A stretch of 64,000 nucleotides of DNA from Tannerellaceae bacterium (lineage in GTDB: Bacteria > Bacteroidota > Bacteroidia > Bacteroidales > Tannerellaceae). The translations under genes and the position numbers were made by a program. The DNA lies in contig JAIRKZ010000149.1 of NCBI GenBank assembly GCA_031259845.1, forward strand, positions 1 through 64,000, read 5' to 3'. Below are positions 4,121-21,393 of the stretch, piece after piece. Every line of letters begins with the position of its first letter. The first letter of the stretch is position 1. The notes beneath the pieces are model-generated. The model did not search any database. It worked only from the letters and a program-made list of their open reading frames with translations, and was not told the origin of the DNA.

Positions 4121-4137
4121 AATCAGTAAATAAAAAA

Positions 4138-4492
4138 TTGCAGCCTGCCTGTAAGCCGGGTTCTGTGCTTTCAATGGAAAAAGCGCCTGCCATTTATCTT
4201 GGCTTACCGTTGCCGGTAAGCTCCAGCGGCCTACCCCCCGGCATCGGACGAGCCATCCTACATGCGCCGGTGTACATGGCCTTACAACCCATAAGACGTA
4301 CGGCGTAGCATATCACTATACTACCGGTGAGCTCTTACCTCGCCTTTTCACCCTTATTCCGCAAGCGGAACGGTTCTTTTCTGTTACATTACTCTGCCTT
4401 TGCAGACAGCTTCCCGTTAGGAAGTATGGCGCTCTGTGTTGCCCGGACTTTCCTCCCAATATTTCATTGAGCGGCAGGCCGGCAGGCTGCAA
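4138..4492 (-). ncRNA. rnpB: RNase P RNA (class A)
   Basis: The minus strand reads GGAGGAAAGTCCGGGC near its 5' end, which is the universal P4 region, and ACAGAACCCGGCTTACAGGC near its 3' end, the matching universal 3' sequence. The ends TTGCAGCCTGCC and GGCAGGCTGCAA are perfectly complementary over 12 bases and form helix P1, which sets the boundaries. The size, about 355 bases, fits bacterial RNase P RNA. This RNA is the catalytic part of the enzyme that trims tRNA 5' leaders. ORFs called across it are shadows. Confidence 0.95.
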
Positions 4493-17474: not shown

Positions 17475-18683
17475 TTAATTTTCAAGCAGGTGTTTTATAA
17501 ATTCATCTTTTTCCAAGATTCCAAATTTACCATTTTTTATGGAGAATTCATCATATTTTGTTACGGAATCCGGTTTTTCCCCCGGTTTATAGATAATAAA
17601 AGGGATTGGCTTGTTGGTATGCGTGCGTATGGCGCAGGGCGTAGGATGATCCGGAAGGATGCCAATGGCTACCGGTTCTTTCCATGCCTGTAATGCTTCT
17701 ACTACAGGGCGGACGATGCGATTGTCTAAATATTCAATTGTTTTAACCTTCAACGCTCCATCCCCTTCATGCCCGGCTTCGTCGCTGGCTTCGACATGCA
17801 GGTAAACAAAATCGTTTGTTTTCAGCGCTTCTAATGCGGCGGCAGCCTTTCCCTCGTAATTCGTATCATATAAACCGGTGGTTCCTTCCACATGAATAAC
17901 CTCCAGGCCGGCATATACGCCGATACCCCTTATCAGGTCTACCGCAGAGATAACGGCCCCTTTCTTAAAGCCAAACATTTCCTGCATGGTTTGCATAGCC
18001 GGGCGATAACCGGGAGACCAGGGCCAGATACTGTTGGCCGGACTTTTGCCTTCGGCGATTCGTTTTTGATTAACCGGATGATCCTTTAACAGATGCTGTG
18101 ATTTCAGGATTAAATCATTCAATAAACCGGCAGTCTCTGATGCTTCGCTTGTTTCGGGCTTCACCATGAACGGGCGAAACGGCTGGAGCGGAACATCATG
18201 CGGAGGCGTACAATCCAATTGTTTATTCCCTTTTTTTATGACTAACAGGTGGCGATAGGAAACGCCGGTGTAAAACCTTATTTGTTCCGACCCCAGTTTT
18301 CCGTTTAAGAACTTAATCAGCACATCCGCTTCTTCCGTACTGATATGCCCTGCCGAATGATTCTTTATCTTATTATCTTCTATACAAATCAGGTTGCACC
18401 GCATAGCCATCTCGCCCGGTTGCAGGGTAACCCCTATACTGGCAGCTTCCAGCACGCCGCGCCCTTCATATACTTTCGGCAAATCGTATCCCAATACGGA
18501 TAAATTAGCCACTTCGCTTCCCGGATGAAACCCTTCGGGTACAGTCTTCAACTGGCCGGTGACGCCCATTTCGGCCAATTTATCCATATACGGCGTATGG
18601 GCGTATTGCAAAGGGGTCATCCCTCCCAGCATATCCACAGGCTCATCCGCCATGCCGTCGCCTAAAATTACAATACTTTTCAT
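17475..18683 (-). CDS. archaeal-type phosphoglycerate-mutase-like protein, probable homoserine kinase
   Basis: This 402-residue protein belongs to the alkaline-phosphatase superfamily (ApgM/TIGR00306-like). It opens SIVILGDGMADEPVD with the metal-binding Asp, and carries FHPGSEVANLSVLGYD, HVEASDEAGHEGD and ILPDHPTPC for the second metal cluster. Its start overlaps the thrA stop by 4 bases (ATGA), so translation is probably coupled. No GHMP homoserine kinase lies in the operon. From memory, genetic work in Bacteroides assigned homoserine kinase activity to such a protein. The assignment here is inference from position plus that knowledge; genuine phosphoglycerate mutase is the alternative. Confidence 0.8.
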   Translation of the reverse strand: MKSIVILGDGMADEPVDMLGGMTPLQYAHTPYMDKLAEMGVTGQLKTVPEGFHPGSEVANLSVLGYDLPKVYEGRGVLEAASIGVTLQPGEMAMRCNLICIEDNKIKNHSAGHISTEEADVLIKFLNGKLGSEQIRFYTGVSYRHLLVIKKGNKQLDCTPPHDVPLQPFRPFMVKPETSEASETAGLLNDLILKSQHLLKDHPVNQKRIAEGKSPANSIWPWSPGYRPAMQTMQEMFGFKKGAVISAVDLIRGIGVYAGLEVIHVEGTTGLYDTNYEGKAAAALEALKTNDFVYLHVEASDEAGHEGDGALKVKTIEYLDNRIVRPVVEALQAWKEPVAIGILPDHPTPCAIRTHTNKPIPFIIYKPGEKPDSVTKYDEFSIKNGKFGILEKDEFIKHLLEN

Positions 18684-21121
18684 CGGATATTAGCTATTGA
18701 GATAATGTCGGCAAATACGCCGGCGGCTGTTACGTCTTCGCCGGCTCCGTATCCTTTGATAATCATGGGATAGTCATTATACCGCTCGGTGGATATCATG
18801 ATGATGTTGTTGCTTCCTTCCAATTCGTAGAAAGGGTGGTGGCGGTCTACTTCCTGCAAGCCTACTTCACATTCGCCCCTTTCCATTTTGGCTACCAAAC
18901 GGATATGTTTCTTTTCAGCTTCCACACGCTTGCGCATCGCTTCAAATTCGGCATCCAGTTCTTTGATGTTTCTCCGGAAGTCGTCTAAAGAACCTTCAAA
19001 ATATTTTTCCGGGATAAACAGGTTTACTTTTACGTCTTTCTGTTCTATCTTATAACCGGCCTCGCGGGCCAGTATCACCAATTTGCGAATAACATCCTTA
19101 CCGCTCAAATCAATGCGGGGGTCGGGTTCGGCATAGTTGGCTTCTTTGGCCATTTGTATCGCCCGGCTGAAAGGAATATCTGCACTCAGGGTGTTGAAAA
19201 TAAAATTAAGCGTACCCGACAGTACAGCTTCCAGTCTTAATATATGGTCGCCACTGTTTATCAGGTCGTTCATTGTATTAATGATAGGAAGCCCGGCGCC
19301 TACATTTGTTTCGAATAAGAATTTTACGTCCCGTTGGCGGGCTGTATCTTTCAGGTTTGTATAGTTGTTGTAAGACGATGAGGCCGCCATTTTATTAGCC
19401 GCTACTACGGAGATATTATTCTTCAGCAGTTCGGAATATATTTCGGCTATTTCGGGACTGGCCGTGCAATCTACAAATACGGAATTGAAAATATTCATTT
19501 TCAGTATCTCGTCACACAAATACCGGGGCGAACTGTCTTCTCCTTTTTCTTTCAATTCGCGGATGCAGGTATCCAGGTTCAAGCCTTGCCGGGAAAGGAG
19601 TAATTTTTTTGAATTAGCGATACCTACCACCCGCAGTTTAAGGCTGTTCTGTTCCATCAACGTAGCCTGCTGGTTGCGGATTTGTTCCAATAACTTTTTG
19701 CCTACCGTACCAATCCCTACCAGAAAGAGGTTTAATACTTTATATTCCGAAAGAAAAAACGAATCGTGAATAGAGTTTAACGCTTTCCGTAAATATTCAT
19801 GCTTGATAACGAACGATATATTCGTTTCCGAGGCGCCTTGTGCACAAGCTATCACACTGATACCGGCCCTGCCCAGCGTACCGAACAGCTTTCCTGCAAT
19901 ACCCGGCGTCCGTTTCATATTTTCGCCTACAATCGCTACGGTAGCCAGGTCTTTCTCGGCTGTAATATCATCTATTTCGCCCTGTGCGCGTTCAATGGCA
20001 AACGTTTCATTCAATACGGCTACCGATAAATCGGCGTCGGCATTGCGGACGGCAAAGGTTGTATTGTTTTCCGAACTTGCCTGGGATACCATAAACACGC
20101 TGATGCCATTCTTTGCCAATGTTTTGAATATACGGTAATTCACTCCGATAATGCCTACCATGCCCAAACCCTGTACGGTGACAAGGCAGGTATCGTTAAT
20201 AGAAGAAATCCCTTTAATGATTGATTTTGCCTCCCCGTTGCTACGCTCTTTAGATATGTAGGTTCCGGGAGCTTCAGGATTGAAGGTGTTTCGTATGAGA
20301 ATAGGTATATTCTTATGATAAACAGGATAAATGGTGGGCGGATAAATTACTTTCGCTCCGAAATTACACAGCTCCATAGCCTCGGTAAAGCTAAGCCTGT
20401 CTATTACATAGGCCGAACTGATAATGCGCGGGTCGGCTGTCATAAAACCGTCTACGTCTGTCCATATTTCCAGTATCGAAGCGTCGAGCGCCGTTGCCAG
20501 GATAGCCGCCGTATAATCCGAACCTCCGCGTCCCAGGTTGGTTACCTCTCCGTTTTCTTTGCTTGAAGAGATAAATCCCGGCACTAAAGAGACGTTAGGC
20601 AGCGGGGTAAACGTTTCTTTTATCAACTCATTCGTCAACTCAAAGTCTACCATGTGTTTGTTAAACTGCTTGAACGTTTTGATAAATTTGCGCGAATCGA
20701 ACAGTTGGGCGTCTTTAATAACATTCGATATGATGAGGGAAGAAATACGTTCGCCATAACTTACAATCGCATCAGACGTCTTGGGCGACAGGTCATTAAT
20801 AAGATAGATACCTTTATATATATTGGATAGTTCGTCGAGCAGACGCATCACCTGCTCCTGCACTTCCATTCGCAAGGTATCGCCGGGGATAACGCCTTCT
20901 ATTACATCCAGGTGCCGGGAGATTATTTCGGATAATTCTTTTTCGTAAGCCATATCGCCTTTTGAGGCCATCAGGGAGGTGTTAATCAATTTATCGGTTA
21001 TTCCGCCCAGCGCTGAAACGATTACTACTACAGGCTCTTCAATAGCCTCTGCTATTTTCTTTACGTTTAAAATGCTTTCTACGGAACCTACGGACGTTCC
21101 GCCGAATTTCAATACTTTCAT
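18680..21121 (-). CDS. thrA: bifunctional aspartate kinase/homoserine dehydrogenase I
   Basis: This 813-residue cytoplasmic fusion catalyses the first and third steps from aspartate to homoserine. The kinase half starts MKVLKFGGTSVGSVES and holds NLGRGGSDYTAAI near residue 205. Two ACT domains (VQGLGMVGIIG, IVGENMKRTPGI, IACAQGASETNISF) at about 310-460 provide feedback control by threonine. The dehydrogenase half begins at about 465 with LFLVGIGTVGKKLLEQI, a Rossmann loop, and ends with the GYGAGEDVTAAGVFADI motif. The start is the first ATG after a leader peptide lying 115-189 bases upstream. It heads the operon thrA, the homoserine-kinase-like gene and thrC. Confidence 0.97.
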   Translation of the reverse strand: MKVLKFGGTSVGSVESILNVKKIAEAIEEPVVVIVSALGGITDKLINTSLMASKGDMAYEKELSEIISRHLDVIEGVIPGDTLRMEVQEQVMRLLDELSNIYKGIYLINDLSPKTSDAIVSYGERISSLIISNVIKDAQLFDSRKFIKTFKQFNKHMVDFELTNELIKETFTPLPNVSLVPGFISSSKENGEVTNLGRGGSDYTAAILATALDASILEIWTDVDGFMTADPRIISSAYVIDRLSFTEAMELCNFGAKVIYPPTIYPVYHKNIPILIRNTFNPEAPGTYISKERSNGEAKSIIKGISSINDTCLVTVQGLGMVGIIGVNYRIFKTLAKNGISVFMVSQASSENNTTFAVRNADADLSVAVLNETFAIERAQGEIDDITAEKDLATVAIVGENMKRTPGIAGKLFGTLGRAGISVIACAQGASETNISFVIKHEYLRKALNSIHDSFFLSEYKVLNLFLVGIGTVGKKLLEQIRNQQATLMEQNSLKLRVVGIANSKKLLLSRQGLNLDTCIRELKEKGEDSSPRYLCDEILKMNIFNSVFVDCTASPEIAEIYSELLKNNISVVAANKMAASSSYNNYTNLKDTARQRDVKFLFETNVGAGLPIINTMNDLINSGDHILRLEAVLSGTLNFIFNTLSADIPFSRAIQMAKEANYAEPDPRIDLSGKDVIRKLVILAREAGYKIEQKDVKVNLFIPEKYFEGSLDDFRRNIKELDAEFEAMRKRVEAEKKHIRLVAKMERGECEVGLQEVDRHHPFYELEGSNNIIMISTERYNDYPMIIKGYGAGEDVTAAGVFADIISIANIR

Positions 21122-21158: not shown

Positions 21159-21171
21159 CCGGAATTTCCGG
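21159..21171 (-). terminator. candidate attenuator hairpin of the thr leader
   Basis: CCGGAAATTCCGG lies between the leader peptide and thrA and is followed by TTCTTTAT, a weak U tract. Another partly paired region (CTACAA with TTGTAG around AGG/CCT) lies just upstream and could be the competing structure. I cannot decide by eye which fold is terminator and which antiterminator. Confidence 0.3.
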
Positions 21172-21235
21172 GATAAGAAAAAGAGATGCAATATCAGGGA
21201 ATTGCTACAACGCAGGGCGTGGCCTCCGCTATTGT

Positions 21236-21310
21236 TTATTTGTAGATTCTAACCCCCCAAGGGGTCGTTGTTAATGCCCACGTATAATATGCAAATACTG
21301 CATTTGTCAT
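21236..21310 (-). CDS. thrL: threonine operon leader peptide
   Basis: This 24-residue ORF is missing from the ORF track. It runs from ATG at 21310 to TAA at 21236, upstream of thrA on the same strand. The peptide contains TWALTTTPWG, including three consecutive Thr codons (ACA ACG ACC), and has five Thr in all plus Ile and Val. Such Thr/Ile-rich peptides before thrA act as ribosome-stalling sensors in attenuation. Stalling at low charged threonyl-tRNA would favour an antiterminator and expression of thrA. Reading frame, position and composition are seen directly; the regulation is inferred from thrL of other bacteria. Confidence 0.75.
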   Translation of the reverse strand: MTNAVFAYYTWALTTTPWGVRIYK

Positions 21311-21393
21311 AAAGTTCTTTCTTTTTTCTGGTTTATTACGGCACAATATTACATATTATTTATTAAACGGCAAAAAATAGATCACTTTATTAA

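What the first reader, a model, noticed from the sequence alone, without database searches (positions are those of the whole stretch)
21159..21310. Unannotated threonine leader peptide and attenuator
A 24-codon ORF ahead of thrA encodes TWALTTTPWG with three Thr codons in a row. Candidate hairpins lie between it and thrA. This is the logic of thrL attenuation known from Proteobacteria, here in a Bacteroidetes operon of different gene content.
Basis: partly seen in the sequence, partly recalled or inferred. Interest (0 to 1): 0.65.

Follow-up and report, generated by a model that had tools for sequence, protein, structure and literature searches.

The report
Threonine leader-peptide attenuator before thrA
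A short, unannotated threonine-containing peptide gene and RNA hairpins sit in front of the threonine operon of a gut bacterium, and relatives across its class carry the same kind of element, so it is very probably a threonine-sensing switch built differently from the E. coli one.

Summary
The 24-codon ORF MTNAVFAYYTWALTTTPWGVRIYK (21310-21236, minus strand) lies between a predicted promoter and thrA. 68 of 90 Tannerellaceae thrA upstream regions carry it. The peptide is under selection (YYTWAL block, pN/pS 0.15), and hairpins H2 and H3 after the ORF covary. The TTT run is not the conserved part: one Thr (YYT) is invariant, a second (TP) nearly so.

In other Bacteroidales families and other orders, thrA is often preceded by unrelated Thr-rich peptides (SYTTTTTPWGV*, STTTTTTP*, FITTP*) ending in the same hairpin, ACCCC-loop-GGGGU, often with the stop codon in the loop. 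In some it is a full intrinsic terminator whose 5' arm is the Thr codons. This genome also has a His leader ahead of hisG and an Ile/Leu/Val leader ahead of ilvD, so codons match each operon.

Best reading: ribosome-mediated attenuation of the thr operon, in a compact form where the leader ORF runs into the hairpin. How the window's own version switches (H1-H4) is unresolved. Leader-peptide attenuation is a known kind, already noted in Bacteroidota; I found no description of this form. No expression data were available.

The parts
21371..21373 (-). putative -33 TTG promoter element
   Evidence: sequence; TTTTTTG conserved in relatives; 19 bases from the -7 box; consensus from general knowledge
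21344..21351 (-). putative -7 promoter element TAATATTG; start site expected near 21337
   Evidence: conserved in alignment A1; the same box lies directly ahead of thrA in leaderless L035
21236..21310 (-). leader ORF MTNAVFAYYTWALTTTPWGVRIYK, 24 codons plus TAA
   Evidence: 68 relatives
21272..21289 (-). conserved peptide block YYTWAL
   Evidence: pN/pS 0.148 over 38 distinct blocks; Thr invariant
21263..21271 (-). three adjacent Thr codons ACA ACG ACC
   Evidence: the last belongs to the nearly invariant TP pair
21250..21267 (-). hairpin H1, ACCCC-UUGG-GGGGU core, overlaps the ORF
   Evidence: unique in the genome
21207..21235 (-). hairpin H2, ACAA..GCGG[A]GGC-CAC-GCC CUGC..UUGU, directly after the stop codon
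   Evidence: changes on both sides in 8 of 11 pairs
21188..21205 (-). hairpin H3, GCAAU..AUUGC
   Evidence: changes on both sides in 3 of 5 pairs, 100% of cells paired
21175..21186 (-). U-rich stretch after H3 (UCUCUUUUUCUU)
   Evidence: kept in most relatives
21159..21171 (-). hairpin H4, CCGGA-AAU-UCCGG followed by UUCUUU, terminator-like
   Evidence: different bases but paired in L073 and L081
18680..21121 (-). thrA, bifunctional aspartate kinase / homoserine dehydrogenase
   Evidence: NF006959, 1039.7 bits
17475..18683 (-). apgM-type proposed homoserine kinase
   Evidence: TIGR02535 and NF003242
16134..17453 (-). thrC, threonine synthase
   Evidence: TIGR00260

Best explanation
The region is a ribosome-mediated attenuator that lets the supply of charged Thr-tRNA set transcription of the thrA-homoserine kinase-thrC operon. 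Shown from sequence: a conserved leader ORF with Thr codons follows a predicted promoter and runs into hairpin H1, and H2, H3 and H4 with U-rich stretches follow before thrA. Inferred: when Thr-tRNA is scarce the ribosome halts on the Thr codons. In the form found in other Bacteroidia families those codons lie in the 5' arm of the hairpin or terminator, so a halted ribosome would physically block it and RNA polymerase would read on; when Thr is plentiful the ribosome finishes (often at a stop codon in the loop), leaves, and the terminator folds. In the window's family the ORF was extended through H1 and termination would have moved to H3 or H4. How ribosome position is passed on to them there is not known.
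For: ORF conserved in 68 of 90 family regions with peptide-level selection and an invariant Thr. Where WAL is lost Thr often replaces it (YHTCTTTMTP, YHTYTTTMTP). Unrelated Thr-rich leaders ending in the same hairpin in other Bacteroidales families and other orders. Complete terminators with Thr codons in the 5' arm in L147 and L149. H2 and H3 covary; H4 terminator-like. The same genus has His codons ahead of hisG and Ile/Leu/Val codons ahead of ilvD, including this genome. Predicted promoter upstream of the ORF.
Against: No expression, 5'-end or ribosome data. In the window's family no convincing antiterminator was found: H2 to H4 fold alike with the ribosome modelled on the Thr codons, and the one conserved alternative pairing is weak. 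H3 alone is weak (-2.9 kcal/mol). Many family leaders have only two or three Thr codons. 22 of 90 family regions and more than half of the other-family regions show no such leader.
Confidence: 0.85

Rival explanations
1. In the window's family the leader is an arrest peptide: the nascent chain AYYTWALxxTP halts its own ribosome, perhaps in response to threonine or another metabolite, and Thr codon speed is secondary (comparable in outline to TnaC).
For: Non-Thr residues Y, Y/H/F, W, A, L are conserved with free third codon bases (pN/pS 0.148). Thr codons in the family are as few as two. Some members end ..WALTMTP* (L028, L052, L054).
Against: Trp, Ala and Leu are replaced in several species, often by Thr, and Thr is the invariant residue. 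Other families keep Thr runs without this block.
Confidence: 0.2
2. The leader acts on translation or RNA stability, or through Rho-dependent termination, rather than by an intrinsic terminator: ribosome position around H1 and H2 exposes or hides the downstream RNA.
For: In the window H1 has no U tract, H3 is weak, and H2 starts directly after the stop codon where a terminating ribosome would cover it. Structures after H1 differ between subgroups.
Against: H3 and H4 are followed by U-rich stretches, other families have clear terminators, and no structure over the thrA start was seen.
Confidence: 0.15
3. A metabolite-binding riboswitch or T-box, with the ORF incidental.
For: Conserved, covarying H2 and H3 with a conserved CAC loop.
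Against: The ORF is under peptide-level selection, H2 and H3 are missing in many relatives that keep the ORF, and there is no Rfam match.
Confidence: 0.03
4. Chance ORF and chance hairpins.
For: Single-sequence folding is unremarkable.
Against: Shuffle controls, covariation, uniqueness in the genome, and the match of leader codons to operon product.
Confidence: 0.02

Closest known systems
Enterobacterial thr operon leader thrL (Rfam Thr_leader)
   Same: Short Thr-codon ORF ahead of thrA followed by hairpins; same operon product.
   Different: No Rfam match. Thr codons run directly into the GC hairpin H1; extra conserved YYTWAL block; hairpins H2-H4 of unrelated sequence; no antiterminator found.
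Actinobacterial ilvB leaders with regulatory codons overlapping the terminator (PMC1262725; Corynebacterium ilvB-II uORF, PMC10272879)
   Same: Leader ORF whose regulatory codons overlap the candidate terminator hairpin: closest architecture to the short form in other Bacteroidia families.
   Different: Branched-chain codons, another phylum and operon; in the window's family the overlapped hairpin H1 has no U tract.
Leader-peptide attenuation noted upstream of amino-acid operons in Flavobacterium psychrophilum (PMC9723704) and sORFs in long 5' UTRs of Bacteroides thetaiotaomicron (PMC7366714)
   Same: Same phylum and same general mechanism proposed.
   Different: The main texts do not mention thrA; no hairpin core with a stop codon in the loop is described there.
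His and Ile/Leu/Val leaders ahead of hisG and ilvD in this genus (found here)
   Same: Leader ORF with codons of the operon's product in the same genome.
   Different: They look classical: separate strong terminators with U tracts, and for ilvD a GGAGAAAGG / CCUUUCUCC / GGAGAAAGG triple that gives antiterminator and terminator.

Membership tests
Ribosome-mediated leader-peptide attenuator | Translated short ORF between promoter and operon | tested here: met
   Conserved start codon at fixed distance, pN/pS 0.148, promoter boxes upstream; translation itself not measured
Ribosome-mediated leader-peptide attenuator | Regulatory codons of the amino acid made by the operon | tested here: met
   Invariant Thr in 68 leaders; Thr-rich leaders elsewhere; His and ILV codons at hisG and ilvD
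Ribosome-mediated leader-peptide attenuator | Intrinsic terminator between leader and first gene | tested here: inconclusive
   H3 and H4 with U-rich stretches in the window, of modest strength; clear terminators in L147 and L149
Ribosome-mediated leader-peptide attenuator | Ribosome position decides terminator formation (antiterminator or occlusion) | tested here: inconclusive
   Overlap of Thr codons with the terminator in other families; no convincing alternative pairing in the window's family
Ribosome-mediated leader-peptide attenuator | Expression rises on limitation of the amino acid | not testable with these tools
   needs a reporter or RNA-seq experiment
Rfam Thr_leader | Match to the Rfam covariance model | tested here: not met
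   No match at gathering score or at E up to 5
T-box riboswitch | Match to the Rfam T-box model | tested here: not met
   No match
Arrest-peptide leader (TnaC-like) | Peptide-level conservation of non-regulatory residues | tested here: met
   YYTWAL block, pN/pS 0.148
Arrest-peptide leader (TnaC-like) | Ligand-dependent ribosome arrest by the nascent chain | not testable with these tools
   needs toeprinting

The most novel reading that the evidence does not exclude
A Bacteroidia-wide class of minimal attenuators in which the leader's own last Thr-Pro codons form the 5' arm of the terminator and the stop codon sits in its loop, and from which Tannerellaceae evolved an arrest-peptide version (YYTWAL) with added hairpins H2-H4.
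Probability: 0.25. Interest if true: 0.75.

Novelty: new variant of a known kind. Interest (0 to 1): 0.5.

Why it matters
It gives the thr operon of a large class of gut bacteria a concrete, testable amino-acid sensor. The same core hairpin persists under otherwise unrelated peptides, so ancestral and derived forms can be compared to see how an attenuator changes its switch. His and Ile/Leu/Val leaders in the same genome suggest that leader-peptide control is a general strategy there, and such short ORFs are missing from standard annotation.

Tried and rejected
Order-wide DNA pattern built on the window's own motif: matched only the family (4 of 393 genomes), which suggested a family-only element until upstream regions were read one by one. 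Rfam at gathering and relaxed thresholds: nothing relevant. Single-sequence fold of the leader: not significant. Search for an antiterminator by conserved complementarity: only a weak G-run/H2 pairing, and H2-H4 fold alike under modelled stalls. The idea that conserved TPWG reflects peptide function: rejected, because Trp sits in the H1 loop and varies (F, S, L, E, H, C, R, G) or is replaced by a stop codon (L028, L052, L054) while the stem stays. The 2010 survey of attenuation by Lopatovskaya and colleagues (10.1134/S0026893310010164) is not held and may already list Bacteroidetes cases.

Full report
What was checked. It lies upstream of thrA (18680-21121), which is followed by an apgM-type proposed homoserine kinase and thrC. 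A Bacteroidetes-type promoter (TTG at 21373-21371, TAATATTG at 21351-21344; consensus from general knowledge) is conserved upstream of the ORF, so the ORF should be in the transcript. In a leaderless relative (L035) the same -7-like box sits directly ahead of thrA.

Who carries it. The window comes from a Tannerellaceae genome assembled from a metagenome (named relatives). Of 90 thrA upstream regions read in the family, 68 carry a leader with Y[YHF]T followed mostly by WAL; the start codon is 6 or 7 codons ahead of this block in 63 of them. Among 38 distinct 18-base blocks, synonymous differences far exceed amino-acid changes (pN/pS 0.148), and the Thr of YYT is present in all 68 with all four third bases used. 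Selection is therefore on the peptide, not only on the RNA. The presence rule required this Thr, so the better independent measure of Thr is the comparison with other families below.

What is and is not conserved. The TTT run is rare in the family; relatives mostly have TMTP or MTP. By contrast the bases ACCCC...GGGGGU after the Thr codon are almost invariant. In variants the loop codon changes (TPFGG, TPSGG, TPLGG, TPEGV, TPHGV, TPCGG, TPVRG) or becomes the stop codon TAG (L028, L052, L054), with the stem kept; L095 has UCCCC-GUGU-GGGGA and L041 ACCUCU-UGAG-AGAGGU, both compensatory. So H1 is an RNA hairpin that overlaps the ORF. The core ACCCCTTNGGGGGT occurs once in the 3.66-Mb genome.

Structure after the ORF. 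On an alignment of 27 distinct sequences, H2 and H3 have 95% and 100% of cells paired, with changes on both sides in 8 of 11 and 3 of 5 pairs. Over all three helices there are 38 double-change cells against 8.6 in shuffles and 3 to 7 when the partner is slid. RNAalifold finds the same three hairpins unprompted. H4 (CCGGA-AAU-UCCGG, then UUCUUU) is terminator-like and is replaced by GGACA...UGUCC in L073 and L081. H2 and H3 are confined to part of the family; other members have other hairpins in this place.

Outside the family. thrA upstream regions of 61 genomes from other Bacteroidales families contain, in 25, a short ORF with a Thr codon running into a GC hairpin: MQNKPPYFSYTTTTTPWGV, MMNFTAHTLLFTTTTPWGVQ, MKQFLQYCFIYTTITTTTP, MCNTVPHILFITTP, MMFWQLHITTTTTTTPAGV and others. 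Apart from Thr and the hairpin codons these peptides are unrelated, so the recurrence of Thr is informative. Shuffles give 0.2 of 61, and 0.6 of 90 for the family. A sample from other orders of the phylum adds MKNNSIKYQSSIITTQTGVAIAATIISTTTTTTP, MSATTTITITTP with ACCCC-AUAA-GGGGU, and classical-looking Thr/Ile leaders such as MYNSTIIITIIITTGRNLAEE. Many of these ORFs end at a stop codon in the hairpin loop, and U-rich stretches follow H1 more often than background (48% against 19.5% with 6 or more T in 7). In L147 and L149 the hairpin is a complete intrinsic terminator (GCAACA...CCCC-UUA-GGGG...UGUUGC-UUUUUU in L149) with Thr codons in its 5' arm.

Specificity control. If these leaders sense amino acids, other operons should carry other codons. 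In the window's genus hisG is preceded by His-rich leaders (own genome: MKGNRLHHHHHCNKGR*) and ilvD by Ile/Leu/Val-rich leaders (own genome: MVSNILHNIILVVLLVISRR*), with strong terminators and, for ilvD, a classical antiterminator triple.

Mechanism. Shown: the ORF, its selection, the hairpins, the codon-operon match. Inferred: stalling at Thr codons under Thr-tRNA shortage prevents termination. For the short form this follows directly from the overlap of Thr codons and terminator. For the window's form it does not: with the ribosome modelled on the Thr codons, H2 to H4 fold as before, and the only conserved alternative pairing (H1 G-run with the H2 3' arm) is weak. I therefore claim attenuation by a Thr leader at 0.85 but no specific switch for this family. 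The conserved YYTWAL block leaves room for nascent-chain arrest.

Relation to known systems. It works like thrL-type attenuation. It is not a member of the Rfam Thr_leader family as tested. Overlap of regulatory codons with a terminator was described for actinobacterial ilvB (PMC1262725). Clues for leader-peptide attenuation at amino-acid operons were noted in Flavobacterium psychrophilum (PMC9723704), so attenuation in the phylum is not new. Searches of the held library found no description of thrA leaders in Bacteroidales; a 2010 survey by Lopatovskaya and colleagues is not held and may cover some.

Noticed in passing
L217 (own genome G000, contig C11) and L209, L211-L213, L215: His-rich leader ORFs ahead of hisG (MKGNRLHHHHHCNKGR* in this genome) followed by a strong terminator; unannotated histidine attenuator.
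   Followed up: partly
L230 (own genome G000, contig C95) and L221, L223-L225, L229: Ile/Leu/Val-rich leader ORFs ahead of ilvD (MVSNILHNIILVVLLVISRR* in this genome) with a classical antiterminator/terminator triple.
   Followed up: partly
L031, L032, L049, L050, upstream of thrA: The interval between leader and thrA is filled with repeated GTTGACAGTTGACAG / GTCAACTGTCAAC units instead of H2-H4.
   Followed up: no
L009 / L058 (G009), upstream of thrA: No leader; the upstream region is a tandem array of GGGGCCAAGCAGATGGTCGTC-like units.
   Followed up: no
L041 (G014) and L104 (G016), upstream of thrA: H1 followed by a U-rich stretch, stop codon in the loop, and no H2-H4: within the family these resemble the short form of other families.
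   Followed up: no
window 4136-4490, minus strand: Bacterial RNase P RNA class A (Rfam RF00010, 253.6 bits).
   Followed up: no
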